Shown: positions 283-6,648 of the stretch, in pieces
Numbering within the stretch: position 1 is the first letter of the stretch
How the letters are laid out: each line of letters opens with the position of its first letter
Assembly: GCA_015655565.1 (NCBI GenBank)
Contig: JAATEU010000152.1
Span: 1-6,648 of the forward strand
Origin: Clostridiales bacterium
GTDB lineage: Bacteria > Bacillota > Clostridia > Lachnospirales > Lachnospiraceae
Direction of reading: 5' to 3'
Length of the DNA stretch: 6,648 nt
Translations under genes and position numbers: made by a program
Notes under the pieces: model-generated
What the model saw: the letters and a program-made list of their open reading frames with translations, nothing else
What the model was told of the DNA's origin: nothing
Databases searched by the model: none

Positions 283-825
283 TTAACCACACATATCCCC
301 CTCGATTTTCCACTCGTCCATTTCCTCGCTAACAGGAATAAACCCAAACTTTTCGTACATTTTAACCGCTCTATCGTTGCAAGCGGCAACCGTCAGAAAA
401 ACAGGCGTGCACTGCGTTTGTTGAAGCTTTGCGACAATAAAATTCAATAATTTCGGCCCGTAACCTTTGCCCTGAGACTGCGGAGCGACCATCACTCTCT
501 CGACCTCATAACAGTTTTCCTCTTTGTTGTGATTAATCCGGATGCTTCCGACAAACTTATCGTTTTCGAACCATAGATATATTTCTCGATTTTGAACTTC
601 TTCAAGTGGGAAAAATTGGCGTATATTGCTGTGCATTTTGCTAAATAAATTAACAAAAATTTCATTTCCGACCTTTTGATAGATATTGTAATATTTGTCT
701 TGAAACAAAATCAACTTCGGCTCTAAATCTGAAGTGACAGCCCCGCCTCTATACTCCATTCTTGTAAACCAGGCGTAAACAATGCCGTTTGCTTCATCGA
801 TTCGTAATGGATAATTTGCTTTCAG
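283..825 (-). CDS. GNAT-family N-acetyltransferase with probable CTG start
   Basis: The product is a GNAT-fold acetyltransferase that would transfer an acetyl group from acetyl-CoA to an unknown amine substrate in the cytoplasm. Numbered from the first ATG (759), the acetyl-CoA pyrophosphate-binding loop is QSQGKGYG (94-101), matching Q/R-x-x-G-x-G. It follows strand VERVMVAP (87-94). The late motif NDRAVKMYEKFGF (128-140) is the usual GNAT Asn and Tyr region. From the ATG the protein is 158 residues. The frame stays open upstream, and a GAGGAG site (839-834) lies 8 bases before a CTG (825-823) that overlaps the TGA of the preceding remnant as CTGA. Starting there gives 180 residues and adds 22 coding-like residues (KANYPLRIDEANGIVYAWF). 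No ribosome binding site precedes the ATG at 759. ATT at 828 is a less likely start. The family call is firm; the start is inferred and the substrate is unknown. Confidence 0.88.
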   Translation of the reverse strand: MKANYPLRIDEANGIVYAWFTRMEYRGGAVTSDLEPKLILFQDKYYNIYQKVGNEIFVNLFSKMHSNIRQFFPLEEVQNREIYLWFENDKFVGSIRINHNKEENCYEVERVMVAPQSQGKGYGPKLLNFIVAKLQQTQCTPVFLTVAACNDRAVKMYEKFGFIPVSEEMDEWKIEGDMCG

Positions 826-948: not shown

Positions 949-1950
949 TCATTTATCCATAATGCCAAACTCTGCTGCAGCAAGAATCTCCATCGCAGTC
1001 TTACCAAGCTTCGGCCACCATCCGTCTACGGCTTCGGTCATAGCAACAAAGTTCCCCTCATCCGCCTCAAAGCTAACGAAATCCCATACGGCATGGTTAT
1101 CATAGGTGCCCATGGTACCGTGGCCGTAGGACTCTGTTTTCAACCCGGTGCCACAGACTCCGAAACTCTCCCAGTAGTGGAGATCAATCCAGCCATCCTC
1201 TCCGACCGGGCGAAAGCTGAGACCGTAGCTTATACATCCCCTAGCATACTCCGTTATGCAGTATTCCCAGCCTTCCATATAGGGCAGACTAATGCTGATA
1301 CTGTCATGCTCATAGCTGACGTCAAAATCATTAATATTCTTATTGAGATTAAAACCTGCATAATAGAGCTTTTTGTCATAATCACCGGTACCTCTGAAAT
1401 CCATGATCTCCTTTCCGATGCGATAGCTACCTGTAGGGAGCTCACCATATAGCCTGGTCCAGTCTACCGTCCATTCAACCGAATCATTAGCGTTGATACA
1501 CCAAGCTTCATCCGTCCATACTAATTCGTACTCTGATAGAAGGAGTTCGACCTCGACCCATTCTCCATCCGTCAAGACTTCAAGAAAATACGGACTTCCG
1601 GTCTGGAGCTTTCCGCTGGGTTCTCCCTCTGACTGCTTGCAGATGATGGTAAGACCGATGGAATTGATATCCCTTGCAATGAGTTTCACACCCCATTCAT
1701 CTTGATAAGCTTCATCAGCGTTCGTCCTTCCGATGCCGACGACATCGGATATGGGGACTGTATTCTCATTAGGAAGCGTTCCCTTATCCGGAAGCTCATT
1801 GTCATAGCTGTTGTCATATGCGTTCAGCGACCCACTATGTTTGTCTTCTGCTTTCAACATGGTTAAGGGTTTTTCTCCCTCTGCTTGACATCCATAGAAC
1901 ATGCACATGAAAAGAACCACCATGATATAGATTAATTTTCTTTGCTTCAT
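949..1950 (-). CDS. Secreted lipoprotein with Big_14-like Ig domain
   Basis: A 333-residue probable surface lipoprotein of unknown role. I chose the ATG at 1950 because GGAGG (1962-1958) sits 7 bases upstream and the product opens with a signal peptide: basic MKQRK, a hydrophobic stretch, then FYGC with Cys21 as the likely lipidated residue. The lipobox is imperfect, with Phe and Tyr before Gly-Cys. The frame extends 23 codons further to 2019, but that part has no matching site. After a polar linker (about 25-80), residues 85-202 read like the bacterial Ig-like domain Pfam names Big_14: WGVKLIARD, LQTGSPYFLEVL, GEWVEVELL, and LYGELPTGSYRIGKEIMDF. The remainder (about 208-333) is rich in Gly, Trp and Tyr, with LPYMEGWEYCITEYARG and WDFVSFEADEG; I do not recognise it as a family. 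The GC content is visibly higher than in the operon at the right, suggesting a different origin. The lipoprotein and Ig calls are good, the function unknown. Confidence 0.85.
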   Translation of the reverse strand: MKQRKLIYIMVVLFMCMFYGCQAEGEKPLTMLKAEDKHSGSLNAYDNSYDNELPDKGTLPNENTVPISDVVGIGRTNADEAYQDEWGVKLIARDINSIGLTIICKQSEGEPSGKLQTGSPYFLEVLTDGEWVEVELLLSEYELVWTDEAWCINANDSVEWTVDWTRLYGELPTGSYRIGKEIMDFRGTGDYDKKLYYAGFNLNKNINDFDVSYEHDSISISLPYMEGWEYCITEYARGCISYGLSFRPVGEDGWIDLHYWESFGVCGTGLKTESYGHGTMGTYDNHAVWDFVSFEADEGNFVAMTEAVDGWWPKLGKTAMEILAAAEFGIMDK

Positions 1951-1977
1951 AAACACCCCTCCAAGATAAGTTATATT

Positions 1978-1983
1978 ATTATA
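1978..1983 (-). promoter_or_regulatory. Possible -10 element for the lipoprotein gene
   Basis: The minus strand reads a perfect TATAAT at 1983-1978, 27 bases before the ATG at 1950. No good -35 hexamer stands 16-18 bases further upstream (the sequence there is about ACCATT), so this is only a suggestion. Confidence 0.3.
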
Positions 1984-1989
1984 GACGAA

Positions 1990-2016
1990 AAAAAACAGAA
2001 AATGGTTCCGTTTTTT
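1990..2016. terminator. A/T-tract hairpin, possible bidirectional terminator
   Basis: AAAAAACAGAA (1990-2000) can pair with TTCCGTTTTTT (2006-2016) around a 5-base loop, with one mismatch that becomes a G-U pair in the minus-strand transcript. The arm ends form a T-run on either strand. The stem has little GC, so it would be weak. It lies just upstream of the lipoprotein promoter region and may insulate it from transcription coming from the right. Confidence 0.25.
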
Positions 2017-2056
2017 CATGTTTATTATGAATAAAGCTTTCTGAAAGCATACAACT

Positions 2057-2215: not shown

Positions 2216-2788
2216 TTATTGTGACTGTCGCTTTTCATTTACCCGCTCATCAATCCACGTGTATATGTTGTTAATTTCTGCTTCATAGTCTTCATTAATT
2301 TCAAAGAACTTCGCATTATTCTCACTACAACGTTCTTTAAGTTGAGTATGTAGCTTAATAAAATTATCTCGGTTCATATAATCATCACATAAATCCTTTT
2401 TCTCTATCTCACTTCTATGCTCAATGATTCCAGAAATGAAATGCTTCTCAAGATAATTTATTGAAAAGCCTATGTATAGAGAAATAATCTGTTCTGAATA
2501 CTCAGGTTCAAACTCTCGAATTTGGTCTGGCGGTAAATAGCACCCTTCAATAATGATGTGCTGCCCATTTTCAATATTGGTCATAATAATGCCCTTTACA
2601 AGCGGCCACAGTTTATCTGTAAGCTCATCTTCTTTGTCAGTTGCAGTAAAATCACAATATTTATTTCCACGAATCAATCCCATTTTTACGTGGTCTATTG
2701 ATAAATATGGTATCTTATATTTTTCAAGTAATTTCTGTGCCATCAATGTTTTCCCAGTACAACTAACTCCACCAATTAAAATAACCAT
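2216..2788 (-). CDS. Small P-loop kinase-like ATP-binding protein
   Basis: A 190-residue cytoplasmic P-loop protein. A Walker A motif GGVSCTGKT (6-14) directly follows the first strand, as in compact nucleotide or small-molecule kinases. YLSIDHVKMGL (28-38) puts an Asp where this group often has its substrate-binding or catalytic acid. HIIIEGCYLPP (77-87) is a hydrophobic strand ending in Glu, a plausible Walker B equivalent. The C-terminal half is helical and charged, with YMNRDNF (137-143) a possible lid. Length and layout resemble proteins annotated as 2-phosphoglycerate-kinase-like, zeta-toxin-like or chloramphenicol-phosphotransferase-like; I cannot choose between them or name a substrate. 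The start is supported by AAGGAG (2799-2794) 5 bases upstream. It stands alone between a decayed region and the lipoprotein, with no partner antitoxin beside it. Kinase-like fold: fairly confident. Specific reaction: unknown. Confidence 0.8.
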   Translation of the reverse strand: MVILIGGVSCTGKTLMAQKLLEKYKIPYLSIDHVKMGLIRGNKYCDFTATDKEDELTDKLWPLVKGIIMTNIENGQHIIIEGCYLPPDQIREFEPEYSEQIISLYIGFSINYLEKHFISGIIEHRSEIEKKDLCDDYMNRDNFIKLHTQLKERCSENNAKFFEINEDYEAEINNIYTWIDERVNEKRQSQ

Positions 2789-3109: not shown

Positions 3110-3259
3110 TTAGTTTTCTTTAAGAATCATTTCTATATATGTTAAATATTCTCTTGACTCCGTATTATACTGTTTTGTTTCATTTTCAATATAAACATAC
3201 AGCCCCTCAGGTTTAAAATCCGTGCATTTTTCCGAAATAATTTTTGAAATGTTCTCCAA
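3110..3259 (-). pseudogene. Short frame after the AAA gene, probable gene remnant
   Basis: A 49-codon frame reads ENISKIISEKCTDFKPEGLY, then VYIENETKQYNTESREYLTY and IEMILKEN, ending at TAA (3112-3110). The composition is that of a real soluble helical protein. The only in-frame start is TTG at 3259; the nearest GGAGG (3279-3275) is 15 bases away, too far to be normal. In another frame GTG, next to that GGAGG, reads LIISFGEHFKNYFGKMHGF before a stop, and removing one T from the TTTT run at 3218-3215 (minus strand) would join it to FKPEGLYVYIE. So it may be a frameshifted gene with a good start, or a 3' remnant. It begins about 60 bases after the AAA gene and could once have been the operon's next gene. 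Family not recognised. Confidence 0.4.
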
Positions 3260-3321: not shown

Positions 3322-4878
3322 TTATACTATTACTCTTCGAGTATGTTTATTTTCCAATTCCTTTCCACCAATTGGTTTACCAGAAGCTGGAACAGCACGC
3401 TCTCTTCCCCAATCTCTAATGAACTCTATTTTCTCCGGACTGGTTTGGGATAATGGAACTACATTTTTTAGCGATGTTATAATCAAATCATCTGTTAAAA
3501 CTAAATCCTCATTTGCGATTAGGCGGTAAGATACTTCTCTTATTGATGCTTCCAGATCTGCTCCCGTAAACCCTTCCGTAATACTTACCAATTGCTGGAT
3601 TATATCTTCCTTCAGATCAATCTGCAAGTATTTCTTTATATACATCCCAATAATTTCTTTTCTTTCTTCTTCAGTAGGCAAATCTATGAAAAACAATTCA
3701 TCAAATCGACCACGTCGCAATAATTCAGAAGGAAGCATACTAATATCATTGGCAGTTGCAACAACGAATACCATTTTCTTACACTCCTGCATCCAGAACA
3801 AAAATTGCCCCACCATACGTGTAGTTACTCCCGATGAATCATTTCCTGTTCCACCAAGTCCCTTCTCAATTTCATCAATCCATAATACACAAGGTGATAA
3901 ATGTTCTGCTGACTGAAACGCATCTTTTAACTGCTGCTCACTTTGCCCAACATACTGCCCCTGTACAGTGGCAAAATCCAATCGGTACAAAGGAAGATTC
4001 CAATTAGCAGCAATAGCTTTTGCAGAAAGTGATTTTCCACAGCCGGGAACACCTACTAAAAGAACCCCCCGCGGAGGCTGCAAGCCTCTTCTGCGCAATT
4101 CATCTCTTTTTTCAGGAGTCTGTAACTTTTTTTTATCATTGAGCCAACTTTTTAATCCATTAAGTCCCCCAATTTCCAATATCTTATCCGAGATATCTAT
4201 ACGCTCCAGACCTTCTATATTTGAAAATAACTTATCCTTGACAAACTTCAATTCTATCAAATCATCTTTTCTAATCATTCGATTAGCAATTAGCGATGCA
4301 ATTACATTTTGTGCTTCGACTCTGGTAACACCTGTCAATATTGTTGCAGCCTCCCGATAATCATTGCTATCCCACTCAATCTTAATATCCCGCTGATATG
4401 GCTCTACATTTTCATATATAATCTGAAGCATTTCTTCCTCTGTGGGAAGATCCAATGTAATAGCCATTCCCAAACGCTGTAATTGCCCCCAAACACTATT
4501 ATTAGTAATAACGATTATAACACCACCATTTTCTTCAGCAAGAGATACCACATCTAATAAATAACGTGATGCCATTGAATCATTTTCAATATCCGAGACC
4601 TCTGTTAATATGAAAGTCAGATTTTGCTTTAGCCTGATTTGTTCAGCTATATAATCCAAAGCCCCGATTAATGTCTTATCATCATTCACATTTTTCCCAG
4701 TAGAAATATCATAAATACCTTTTGACAGGGTATGTACATAGAAAGGCAAGTTTAATTCATAGGAAACTGCTTTTAAAACTTCTAACCCCCTTGCTTTTTC
4801 CATTGTATAAAATGAGATAAATGGAATCCTTGCTAAAGAATATTGCTTCATTGTTGAAATACTTGTTTTTACATCCAT
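3322..4878 (-). CDS. Ycf46-like AAA+ ATPase
   Basis: A 518-residue cytoplasmic AAA+ ATPase, presumably a remodelling motor. Residues 1 to about 200 form an ATPase-like domain without a Walker A motif; it begins ARIPFISFYTMEKARGLEVL, includes NLTFILTEVSDIE (86-98) and GGVIIVITNNS (118-128), and ends in a helical lid. The intact AAA domain follows: GGLNGLKSWL (237-246), Walker A GVPGCGKS (276-283), pore-loop-like GQYVGQSE (307-314), Walker B VLWIDE (331-336), sensor-1 Asn377 in VVATAND, arginine-finger region RRGRFDE (388-394) and sensor-2 region GFTGADLE (436-443). The C-terminal WGRERAVPAS (490-499) matches the tail I associate with Ycf46-like proteins. Inactive-then-active domains and length fit that family. 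The Cdc48/FtsH/proteasomal groups are more distant alternatives, and no protease domain is present. The start follows the 152-codon gene's stop by 3 bases, with AAGGA (4892-4888) 9 bases upstream, so translation is probably coupled. Its client is unknown but likely encoded next to it. Confidence 0.9.
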   Translation of the reverse strand: MDVKTSISTMKQYSLARIPFISFYTMEKARGLEVLKAVSYELNLPFYVHTLSKGIYDISTGKNVNDDKTLIGALDYIAEQIRLKQNLTFILTEVSDIENDSMASRYLLDVVSLAEENGGVIIVITNNSVWGQLQRLGMAITLDLPTEEEMLQIIYENVEPYQRDIKIEWDSNDYREAATILTGVTRVEAQNVIASLIANRMIRKDDLIELKFVKDKLFSNIEGLERIDISDKILEIGGLNGLKSWLNDKKKLQTPEKRDELRRRGLQPPRGVLLVGVPGCGKSLSAKAIAANWNLPLYRLDFATVQGQYVGQSEQQLKDAFQSAEHLSPCVLWIDEIEKGLGGTGNDSSGVTTRMVGQFLFWMQECKKMVFVVATANDISMLPSELLRRGRFDELFFIDLPTEEERKEIIGMYIKKYLQIDLKEDIIQQLVSITEGFTGADLEASIREVSYRLIANEDLVLTDDLIITSLKNVVPLSQTSPEKIEFIRDWGRERAVPASGKPIGGKELENKHTRRVIV

Positions 4879-4881
4879 CGT

Positions 4882-5340
4882 CTATAATCCTTCCAATTTA
4901 TCAAGGTTATTTTTTTTAATTATACTTGTTAACATTCCTGTCCGATCTAATTTCACTGCTGAGGTTTCCAGGCTTTTCTGCATTGATGACGCCTGTTCTT
5001 TTATGGCATTTACCAAAAGTTCTGCATCTTTTGGCGGCAGAATGGGAATGCGGGCAAATTGAACCAGAAAAATAAACTCTTTTCTTAATGCCAGTAGAGC
5101 ACTACTAAGCAGATTTATATCGCCGCCATTCATTTGTATGGCACGATCAAATTTATCTGATGCTTTCTTAATTCTGTATTGAATCACGGCATTTAACTGT
5201 TCTGCAAATCTGCCTGCCACTCCAGCAGATAACGTAAGACTTCCCTTTCTTACACAATCTAATACTTCAGAGTCCTGAGCACCTGCCTTCACAATATCAA
5301 AACATTCCATCCAAGCTGAATATGTATTAGGTATTTTCAT
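4882..5340 (-). CDS. Helical 152-residue protein, AAA partner
   Basis: Family not recognised. The protein has 152 residues, no signal peptide and no membrane segment, and appears almost wholly helical: AGVAGRFAEQLNAVIQYRIK (39-58), INLLSSALLALRKEFIFLVQ (75-94), and a charged C-terminal helix from about 103 onward. The short turn ARIPILPPKDAE (96-107) is the only Pro-rich break. Its ATG overlaps the stop of the 59-codon gene as ATGA (5340-5337), and GAGGAG (5352-5347) lies 6 bases upstream. Its own stop is 3 bases before the AAA gene. This tight coupling suggests a stoichiometric partner, either an adaptor or a structural subunit acted on by the ATPase; that is inference from position only. 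Confidence 0.8.
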   Translation of the reverse strand: MKIPNTYSAWMECFDIVKAGAQDSEVLDCVRKGSLTLSAGVAGRFAEQLNAVIQYRIKKASDKFDRAIQMNGGDINLLSSALLALRKEFIFLVQFARIPILPPKDAELLVNAIKEQASSMQKSLETSAVKLDRTGMLTSIIKKNNLDKLEGL

Positions 5341-5516
5341 AGACTTCTCCTCACTCTTTTAATTACCTGAAAAGGTGGAACAAGATTCCATTCAGGGAAT
5401 GCAACTGCAAACTCATCGGCAGCCTGTTTCTTTAATTCAATATTGTCAGATGAAAGATTACTTTCATTATTTGTAACAGCAGTATTATTACTATTATCTA
5501 AAATTATTTTACTCAT
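5337..5516 (-). CDS. Conserved-looking 59-residue protein
   Basis: A short gene that simple length cut-offs would miss. ATG at 5516 follows AGGAGG (5530-5525) by 8 bases, and the ribosome binding site overlaps the TAG of the membrane-protein gene. The stop TGA overlaps the next gene's ATG as ATGA. The first 25 residues are Asn/Ser-rich and probably disordered (MSKIILDNSNNTAVTNNESN). Then come a helix IELKKQAADEFAVAF (26-40), the motif FPEWNLVPPFQ (40-50), and a basic end VIKRVRRSL. A flexible leader plus an aromatic/proline motif and basic tail suggests a short linear docking peptide, perhaps binding the 152-residue protein, the ATPase or the membrane protein. No family is recognised. Two-sided coupling makes the gene itself very likely real. 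Confidence 0.82.
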   Translation of the reverse strand: MSKIILDNSNNTAVTNNESNLSSDNIELKKQAADEFAVAFPEWNLVPPFQVIKRVRRSL

Positions 5517-5528
5517 ATAGCATTCCTC

Positions 5529-6648
5529 CTAAATTACTTGTCTGATTTTCTGTGTATCAACAGATGAGATATACTGTTCCGGTTTTAGTTCCTGAAGGAA
5601 ATCTATCACTTTTTGGTACTCTGAATCTTTTTCAGCGAGTAGTCTTTTGTAATCTACAATTTCAGCTATGGTTCCGTTTAACATAGTCAAGGTTTTATTT
5701 CTAAAATCCTCCATCTGAGCCTGTGTTGCTTTTATATTCTTATCAGCCTTTGATTTTTCCATAAATATATAGATTACAACCGCTGTAACTGCCAGGAATG
5801 GAATAATAATTGTACTCCGTCCTATCAGGCAGACAATAATACCGATAATAACTGCAATAATTACATTTGATTTAAACCATTTTATTGATGAAATTGCTTT
5901 GTCTTTTAATTCATCCACAAATTCATTCAAGGACTTTTGCAATTCCAATTCATTTGAACCATCTCTAGTGCTGCCTGTCCAATCTGATATACTAATTTGG
6001 ATATCCAAAGGGACTTCTGACCTGCTTTTTACCGTAATATCTTCATAGGCATTTGAAATCCAGTCTTTTGATAATGAGATTGCCAACTTCTGTGTAGCAA
6101 TCAAAGCACCAGAAGATTCTGGTGCCAGAGCAATACTTGTAAGATGCTGGGAAAAATCTTCATATTGTTCATATGCTATAGTCTCTGCCTCATAACGCAC
6201 ATTTGCTTTGTCAAGATTTCCATATTCTTCAATAATCAAGTTATTCTTACGAAGCTGCAGCCTTAGCAGTAATTCTTCATTATCATAATTTGTTATGAGG
6301 CTATCAAGCAGATCATCTATTTTAGCAGAAATGGATGCGATATTTTCAACCGGTGTATTAAATATAGTACTGAAATACTGGTAAACATCATTGTGAGTTT
6401 TTGCCCATTCCAAAACCGCTTTTAGGTTTGGCCAGGTAGGGCTATATTGATGGAGATAAGAAAACTCTTCCGGATTAACAGTAGCTTTCTTTCCAAGAAT
6501 AGCTTTCGTCCATTGATCCTTCTGTGCTTCAAGAAACCCCACTCTCTCCGATAATTCTTCAAGCCATGCTTTAATCTTATTCGAACATATACCCTTACTA
6601 TCTGCTCCAAACAATCCACTGGCGAAGGCATCTAATACAACAATAATT
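5529..6648 (-). CDS. C-terminal part of a membrane protein, 5' end outside window
   Basis: The frame is open to the window edge (the first visible residues read IIVVLDAFASGLFGADSK), so the start lies upstream of the window. The TTG at 6614 has no ribosome binding site and is probably internal. Numbered from that TTG, residues 1-240 are soluble and mostly helical. Two close hydrophobic segments at about 250-264 (VIIAVIIGIIVCLIG) and 268-285 (TIIIPFLAVTAVVIYIFM) make a membrane hairpin, followed by a charged helix likely to form a coiled coil (286-345). Both ends would face the same side, probably the cytoplasm. The stop overlaps the ribosome binding site of the 59-codon gene. The visible part matches no family I can name; a missing N-terminal NTPase or other catalytic domain is possible. 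In context it is the likely membrane anchor of the AAA-linked system. Confidence 0.8.
   Translation of the reverse strand, partial: IIVVLDAFASGLFGADSKGICSNKIKAWLEELSERVGFLEAQKDQWTKAILGKKATVNPEEFSYLHQYSPTWPNLKAVLEWAKTHNDVYQYFSTIFNTPVENIASISAKIDDLLDSLITNYDNEELLLRLQLRKNNLIIEEYGNLDKANVRYEAETIAYEQYEDFSQHLTSIALAPESSGALIATQKLAISLSKDWISNAYEDITVKSRSEVPLDIQISISDWTGSTRDGSNELELQKSLNEFVDELKDKAISSIKWFKSNVIIAVIIGIIVCLIGRSTIIIPFLAVTAVVIYIFMEKSKADKNIKATQAQMEDFRNKTLTMLNGTIAEIVDYKRLLAEKDSEYQKVIDFLQELKPEQYISSVDTQKIRQVI

What the first reader, a model, noticed from the sequence alone, without database searches (positions are those of the whole stretch)
3322..6648. Four-gene coupled operon built around a Ycf46-like AAA+ ATPase and a membrane protein
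Seen: a partial membrane protein, a 59-residue protein, a 152-residue helical protein and a two-domain AAA+ ATPase, with junctions of stop/RBS overlap, ATGA overlap and 3 bases. Known: AAA+ motors of this type remodel specific protein partners, and such tight coupling usually marks one complex. Inferred: a membrane-tethered ATPase machine with a short docking peptide and a helical adaptor or subunit. None of the three partners matches a family I can name, and I know no described system with this composition. The accessory setting, with remnants, possible IS relic and single cargo genes, would fit a defence, competition or secretion role, but nothing in the sequence proves any of these.
Basis: partly seen in the sequence, partly recalled or inferred. 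Interest (0 to 1): 0.75.

Follow-up and report, generated by a model that had tools for sequence, protein, structure and literature searches.

The report
Mobile five-gene membrane AAA+ machine
Five tightly packed genes, kept together in bacteria of five phyla, encode a AAA+ ATPase and four partners that match no curated protein family; together they are predicted to form a membrane-anchored machine that takes protein scaffolds apart, likely used in conflicts between microbes.

Summary
A 141-base contig overlap in the same assembly completes the membrane protein (575 aa) and adds a fifth gene upstream (157 aa). Around the best 80 of 148 relatives of the membrane protein, 71 loci have at least 3 kb of room downstream; 69 of these carry all five genes, always in the order membrane protein, small protein, helical protein, ATPase. 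The fifth gene is first in 27 and last in 42. Carriers span five phyla and the tree does not follow taxonomy, so the unit likely moves as a whole. The ATPase site is intact in 70 of 70 orthologues examined. The partners match no curated family in the libraries searched. Best reading: a membrane-tethered AAA+ remodelling machine that would work like Vps4/ESCRT-III but is built from unrelated parts, with the small protein's conserved P-x-W-x3-P tail as the likely tether. Wider relatives of the membrane protein sit beside Band-7/SPFH zinc-ribbon genes, and five clostridial cassettes hold toxin-like genes. The role (defence, toxin deployment or envelope repair) is not shown; a neighbour scan showed no clear enrichment of defence genes. 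New system, new variant of a known kind of machine.

The parts
3322..4878 (-). AAA+ ATPase, 518 aa (SpoVK/Ycf46/Vps4-like; one active AAA domain after a 235-residue N-terminal part without P-loop)
   Evidence: Pfam PF00004 E 2.3e-31; active-site residues kept in 70 of 70 rows
4030..4053 (-). Walker A GVPGCGKS (residues 276-283)
3937..3960 (-). pore-loop-1 region GQYVGQSE (307-314), Tyr in 65 of 70
   Evidence: the name pore loop 1 is by analogy with Cdc48/Vps4 (recalled)
3862..3885 (-). Walker B LWIDEIEK (332-339)
3700..3717 (-). arginine-finger region RRGRFD (388-393)
3325..3342 (-). C-terminal tag TRRVIV of the ATPase (513-518)
   Evidence: R514 in 68 of 70, V516 in 67 of 70
4882..5340 (-). 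helical 152-aa protein, predicted adaptor ('ADP' in this report)
   Evidence: alignment A3; no family over a curated cut-off
5337..5516 (-). small 59-aa protein ('SML')
   Evidence: alignment A2
5355..5396 (-). conserved tail P-E-W-N-L-V-P-P-x4-K-R of SML (residues 41-54), predicted docking motif
   Evidence: P41, W43, P47 invariant in the 26 aligned of 82 SML rows; fused to the membrane protein in P0110 and in L152-L154
5337..5340 (-). ATGA stop/start overlap SML-ADP
5529..6648 (-). membrane protein ('MEM'), C-terminal 372 of 575 aa; the rest is on contig C575 (L003:3348-4094), where the 157-aa fifth gene lies at L003:2850-3323
5766..5870 (-). predicted transmembrane hairpin of MEM
   Evidence: hydrophobic stretch read in the sequence; helices in the AlphaFold2 model of the Anaerocolumna relative P0005
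5532..5546 (-). C-terminal IRQVI tag of MEM

Best explanation
The five genes are kept together as one unit and likely encode one membrane-tethered AAA+ machine, in which the ATPase is predicted to pull apart or rearrange a scaffold made of the membrane protein. Shown: the gene set and order, the intact ATPase site, the conserved P-x-W-x3-P tail of the small protein and its natural fusion to the membrane protein. Indicated by the tree and carriers: horizontal spread. Predicted from an AlphaFold2 model: the membrane protein has a long N-terminal coiled coil, a helical (TPR-like) body, a two-helix membrane hairpin and a second coiled coil. Inferred: the ATPase forms a ring; the small protein's tail, with the helical 152-aa protein, recruits that ring to the membrane protein; the 157-aa protein gathers the subunits through the short Arg-Arg-hydrophobic tags at their termini; ATP hydrolysis then resets or opens the scaffold. 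It would thus work like Vps4 on ESCRT-III, with unrelated parts. The most likely use is as a mobile envelope-guarding or effector-releasing module in microbial conflict; this last step is the weakest.
Confidence: 0.45

Rival explanations
1. The cassette is the core of a toxin-deployment system. The AAA+ ATPase and membrane protein prepare or thread toxin proteins for export, with a HerA/VirB4-like ATPase as pump where one is present.
For: Five of the six loci with genes c2 (zinc-ribbon-like by eye, no Pfam match) and c0 (HerA-like: DUF87 E 7e-9; HerA/VirB4 profiles under cut-off) directly upstream (L038, L045, L046, L050, L057, not L066) have a large acidic toxin-like gene between the ATPase and P157, and small genes follow it. 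L057 has a Gln_amidase domain, L046 a SUKH immunity neighbour. A regex for FDDC-type motifs with two or more hits found four of these five (L057 has one hit) and one other ORF in the 80 loci.
Against: Only 5 of the 42 complete P157-last cassettes were seen to have such a gene; the 27 P157-first ones, the window's kind, have the five genes side by side, and their flanks were not scanned for toxin domains. c0 with an acidic giant gene also occurs without the cassette within the 19.5 kb read (L173, L174), so the toxin module is separable. The other toxin-like genes (L038, L045, L050 and the L046 one itself) match no Pfam family; their toxin features are read by eye.
Confidence: 0.2
2. It is an envelope-stress module without a conflict role: a horizontally spread relative of the Band-7/SPFH and PspA sub-membrane assemblies that repairs or organises membrane domains.
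For: MEM paralogues lie in operons with Band_7_1 (E 2e-34 and 5e-28) and zinc-ribbon genes. A published survey notes a two-AAA protein with inactive N-terminal copy beside PspA, and Vps4-like ATPases beside a TPR/6TM protein (PMC11237479, passages read).
Against: No Band-7 or PspA gene in the five-gene cassette; the one PspA found in this incomplete genome lies on another contig. Patchy, mobile distribution is unusual for envelope maintenance.
Confidence: 0.2
3. It is an anti-phage defence system in the strict sense, carried as cargo; the membrane protein senses or executes membrane damage under control of the AAA+ ATPase.
For: Wadjet JetABC 500 bases upstream in Anaerocolumna sp. AGMB13025; type I restriction HsdR and a recombinase fragment upstream in this genome; presence in the record of satellite Javan368 and on plasmids.
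Against: No clear enrichment of PADLOC families among 93 near neighbours against 93 distant ORFs. No subunit matches a PADLOC system apart from AAA-core matches to IetA and others. In three other S. oralis loci the cassette is present without the satellite, so the satellite record may simply include a neighbour.
Confidence: 0.15

Closest known systems
Vps4/ESCRT-III and bacterial PspA/Vipp1 with AAA+ partners
   Same: Classical-clade AAA+ with intact pore loop and Arg finger next to a coiled-coil membrane-proximal protein; short tail peptides as candidate docking motifs (the comparison with ESCRT tail motifs is recalled)
   Different: No MIT domain on the ATPase and no ESCRT-III/PspA family match in the parts scanned; the membrane partner has its own predicted membrane hairpin; two further orphan subunits
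Operons surveyed in PMC11237479: PspA with a two-AAA protein whose N-terminal copy is inactive, and Vps4-like ATPase with a TPR/6TM protein (passages read)
   Same: The pairing of such an ATPase with a membrane-proximal partner
   Different: The passages read do not mention the small tail protein, the 152-aa or the 157-aa protein; whether their ATPase is the same clade was not tested
Bacillus subtilis pspA-ydjGHI (SPFH) operon, PMC8581546 (passages read)
   Same: Wider MEM relatives sit with Band-7 and zinc-ribbon genes of this general kind
   Different: The five-gene cassette has neither Band-7 nor PspA
IetAS anti-phage system
   Same: AAA domain matches IetA profiles
   Different: Match covers the AAA core only, 82.6 bits against a cut-off of 510; no protease partner among the five genes
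Polymorphic toxin systems (PMC3482391, passages read)
   Same: Toxin domain at the C-terminus (L057) and immunity gene next door (L046) in some clostridial cassettes
   Different: None over cut-off in the window ORFs scanned; none of the trafficking modes in the passages read has this gene set

Membership tests
ESCRT-III/Vps4 system | Classical AAA+ ATPase with Walker A/B, Arg finger and pore loop | tested here: met
   Walker A, D335/E336 and R388/R391 in 70 of 70 rows; pore-loop Tyr 65 of 70
ESCRT-III/Vps4 system | MIT domain on the ATPase | tested here: not met
   no MIT match among Pfam families at E 0.1
ESCRT-III/Vps4 system | ESCRT-III/PspA-family polymer partner | tested here: not met
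   no Pfam match of that family for the MEM C-terminal 372 aa, ADP, SML, P157 or three full-length MEM paralogues; full-length MEM itself was not run against Pfam. A fold-level relation is not excluded
Ycf46 family | Inactive N-terminal plus active C-terminal AAA domain (recalled) | tested here: inconclusive
   P-loop absent from the N-terminal part in 70 of 70; source names of some relatives include SpoVK/Ycf46/Vps4; that the N-terminal part is a AAA fold was not tested
IetAS defence system | IetA score over cut-off plus IetS protease | tested here: not met
   82.6 bits against 510; no protease family among the subunits
PSP/SPFH operon | Band-7 or PspA gene in the operon | tested here: not met
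   none of the five; a PspA is on another contig. Met only in wider MEM relatives for Band-7 (L016 and L149 scanned)
Polymorphic toxin locus | Toxin with immunity gene | tested here: not met
   no toxin family over cut-off in the seven window ORFs scanned (the kinase-like ORF 2216-2788 has a Zeta_toxin match of 15.7 bits under the cut-off of 22.3) or on C575 (HsdR, recombinase piece and P157 scanned); present in L057 and L046
Anti-phage defence system | Protects cells against phage | not testable with these tools
   needs plaque assays; the context test gave no clear enrichment
Membrane-anchored complex | Physical association of the five proteins | not testable with these tools
   only gene linkage and fusions seen

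The most novel reading that the evidence does not exclude
A mobile, ESCRT-like membrane machine assembled from parts unrelated to ESCRT: five subunits that travel together across bacterial phyla, four of them from undescribed families, held together by a shared Arg-Arg-hydrophobic terminal code read by the 157-aa hub, and deployed in microbial conflict, in some Clostridia with exchangeable toxins slotted into the cassette.
Probability: 0.25. Interest if true: 0.85.

Novelty: new variant of a known kind. Interest (0 to 1): 0.62.

Why it matters
A five-gene unit this strictly conserved from Clostridia to Burkholderiales, with four subunits that reach no curated cut-off in Pfam or NCBIfam and no convincing PADLOC match (PHROGs was searched for three of the four), is a ready-made target: one cassette, five genes, testable in laboratory strains. 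If the Vps4-like reading holds, it would show a further way in which bacteria couple a AAA+ ring to a membrane scaffold, and would link the Band-7/SPFH network, mobile cargo and polymorphic toxins through one protein family.

Tried and rejected
Literature: ten searches of the open PMC set with SPFH/YdjI, Ycf46, HerA, polymorphic toxin, PspA, satellite and PICI terms; I saw the listings, and passages of four papers (PMC8581546, PMC3482391, PMC7159879, PMC11237479). None of what I saw shows this gene set. Most subscription papers are not held, so this is no proof of absence from print.

Defence-island test: 93 near neighbours (nearest ORF each side within 2.5 kb, 120-800 aa; a random 93 of 116) against 93 outermost ORFs over 5 kb away, PADLOC E 1e-10. 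Family names matched: 35 near (25 listed) and 16 far, each by one member; several names are alternative profiles that look like one protein (PD-T4-6 near, mREase_IV/PbeA far), and the tool does not tell how many distinct proteins are hit, so the sets cannot be told apart. Dropped before the test: near-duplicates L033, L041, L042, and L003, L014-L016 and the window. The size and distance limits also kept out the Wadjet genes of L019, so that case did not count for enrichment.

Satellite cargo: the Javan368 record ends with the cassette, which looked like satellite cargo; BLAST against three other S. oralis loci showed the cassette there without the satellite, next to an integrase remnant, so I do not claim satellite cargo.
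Full report
What is in the window. The minus-strand run is as described: a membrane protein running off the window end (5529-6648), a 59-aa protein (5337-5516), a 152-aa protein (4882-5340) and a 518-aa AAA+ ATPase (3322-4878). Re-reading the junctions gives TAGGAGG stop/RBS overlap, ATGA overlap and 3 bases. In this report they are called MEM, SML, ADP and AAA.

The missing end. The window is contig C426 of a fragmented genome (632 contigs, 63% complete). Contig C575 ends in the same 141 bases, letter for letter, as contigs do where an assembly graph branches. It completes MEM to 575 aa, the commonest length among its relatives, and shows a 157-aa gene (P157) 24 bases upstream. P157 is preceded by a 56-aa serine-recombinase piece (Resolvase E 0.003, under cut-off) and by the 3' part of a type I restriction HsdR gene. 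P157 has one match in the genome.

The unit recurs. A scan of one genome per species with an alignment of 22 MEM homologues confirmed 148 relatives, of which the best 80 were fetched. Profiles started from the window and Anaerocolumna proteins and iterated on these loci were run over their ORFs (limits E 1e-10 for MEM and AAA, 1e-4 for ADP and P157, 0.01 for SML). Of 71 loci with 3 kb or more downstream of MEM, 69 have all five genes, all in the order MEM-SML-ADP-AAA; median gaps are 13, -4 and 10 bases; P157 is first in 27 and last in 42. The two misses are L065 (MEM alone) and L072 (MEM and a long SML). Nine loci have less room; two of these still show all five, seven are incomplete. A tree of MEM plus AAA from 71 rows splits P157-first from P157-last by one branch (support 100); it mixes taxa: Brachyspira (Spirochaetota) within the Anaerocolumna/Clostridium group, Streptococcus beside Lachnospiraceae rows, a Fusobacterium row among Clostridia (quick method; the Brachyspira and Fusobacterium rows are long branches and flagged as unsure). 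With Pseudomonadota, Verrucomicrobiota and Bacillota that makes five phyla (Fusobacterium record).

Does the ATPase occur without partners? In 295 genomes of the order, eight have a match at E 1e-60 (best five candidates scored per genome). Four are 60-100% identical to the window ATPase, and those four genomes also carry MEM (in G284 the full ATPase match is on another contig than MEM, whose contig ends inside an ATPase gene); the other four genomes, and a second match in G284, are 33-41% identical, and no MEM was found in those four genomes. In the wider protein set at least 7,922 relatives of the ATPase exist (a capped count), as expected for this clade. In the phage collection, at E 1e-40, 51 records match; the only one covering 80% or more of the ATPase is Javan368 (63% identity); the mycobacteriophage records listed match 69% of it at about 34%.

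The ATPase. Walker A, the Walker B acidic pair, sensor-1 Asn and R388/R391 are kept in 70 of 70 rows (ORFs of 500-560 aa; shorter and longer ones and L014 left out), pore-loop-1 Tyr in 65 of 70; the first 235 residues have no P-loop in 70 of 70. Its AAA domain is most similar to the second AAA domain of Cdc48/p97 proteins in solved structures. The last residues are mostly R-[RK]-V-[IL]-V.

The tail of SML. In 26 aligned SML proteins, chosen from 82, P, W and P of P-x-W-x3-P are invariant (one has an extra residue before W), while the N-terminal part varies and in Clostridia carries a zinc-ribbon-like CxxC..CxxC segment, read by eye. One MEM homologue of the 120 listed (P0110) ends with this very tail, and three solitary MEM relatives (L152-L154) end with P-x-W-D-[LI]-x-P. 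This natural fusion is the best evidence that SML works on MEM.

Terminal tags. After seeing the termini I set two patterns. The C-terminal one (R[RKQ] plus hydrophobics within the last nine residues) is found in 65 of 78 AAA, 49 of 82 MEM, 20 of 76 ADP, 1 of 78 SML and 0 of 70 P157 rows, against 6 of 775 neighbouring ORFs; the N-terminal one ([RK]-x-hydrophobic-hydrophobic) in 51 of 70 P157, 13 of 78 SML and 2 each of MEM, ADP and AAA, against 78 of 775. The rows within a family are related and the patterns post hoc, so the weight lies in four non-homologous families showing the like, not in the counts. A common receptor is my inference.

Wider relatives. MEM paralogues occur in Band-7/zinc-ribbon operons: in two genomes of the window's genus with three MEM copies, an SML and an ATPase of 37-38% identity (one of the two scanned: Band_7_1 E 2e-34; MEM homology), and in two genomes of the family with an SML but no such ATPase (one scanned: E 5e-28). 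This ties MEM to sub-membrane assemblies of the SPFH kind.

Mobility and conflict. Besides the tree, the cassette is on 26- and 38-kb Komagataeibacter plasmids with an integrase gene nearby and in S. oralis follows a tyrosine-integrase remnant (Phage_integrase E 1e-16) downstream of what reads as rpsD (by eye). In Anaerocolumna sp. AGMB13025 it starts 500 bases after Wadjet JetABC (E 8e-167, 6e-75, 0). In six clostridial loci the genes c2 and c0 (HerA-like) stand directly upstream, and in five of these a large acidic gene with toxin features lies between AAA and P157: Gln_amidase in L057, a SUKH immunity neighbour in L046, HExxH motifs read by eye in L045, L038 and L050. Homologues of c0 with an acidic giant gene occur without the cassette in two other genomes, found at E 1e-120 in 2 of 391 genomes of the class. 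Against a defence reading, PADLOC families are not clearly enriched next to the cassette.

Verdict. A real five-gene system, undescribed in the sources searched. The membrane-remodelling mechanism is the best inference from anatomy; the biological role is open among conflict, toxin deployment and envelope repair.

Noticed in passing
window 283-759 (-): GNAT acetyltransferase (PF00583 E 8e-21).
   Followed up: no
window 949-2019 (-): 356-aa protein with Big_14 Ig-like domain (E 2e-17) and a lipoprotein-like start, read by eye.
   Followed up: no
window 2216-2788 (-): Small P-loop kinase-like protein (AAA_33/AAA_18, under cut-off; weaker zeta-toxin and CPT matches).
   Followed up: no
window 3110-3259 (-): 49-aa ORF just downstream of the ATPase that could be the end of a decayed gene; no Pfam match.
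   Followed up: partly
L003:1-1827: 3' part of a type I restriction HsdR gene upstream of the cassette in the same genome.
   Followed up: yes
L014:1434-6965: Wadjet JetABC genes directly upstream of the cassette in Anaerocolumna sp. AGMB13025; JetD was not looked for.
   Followed up: partly
L038, L045, L046, L050, L057, L173, L174: HerA/VirB4-like ATPase (about 890 aa), a small zinc-ribbon-like gene and large acidic proteins, several with repeated FDDC-like motifs, with small genes after them: a possible toxin-delivery module of its own, separable from the cassette.
   Followed up: partly
L030:9192-9974, L099:8844-9647: Tyrosine-integrase remnant between a gene that reads as rpsD and the cassette in S. 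oralis; the Javan368 satellite record may include a neighbouring resident element.
   Followed up: yes
L046:20987-21661: Tubulin_2 family gene (E 5e-30) near the cassette of a Mogibacterium MAG.
   Followed up: no
G000:C580:4378-5037: A PspA_IM30 homologue elsewhere in the same genome.
   Followed up: no
A3, ADP profile positions 97-141: Weak resemblance to an annexin repeat segment (E 4e-4), probably chance.
   Followed up: no
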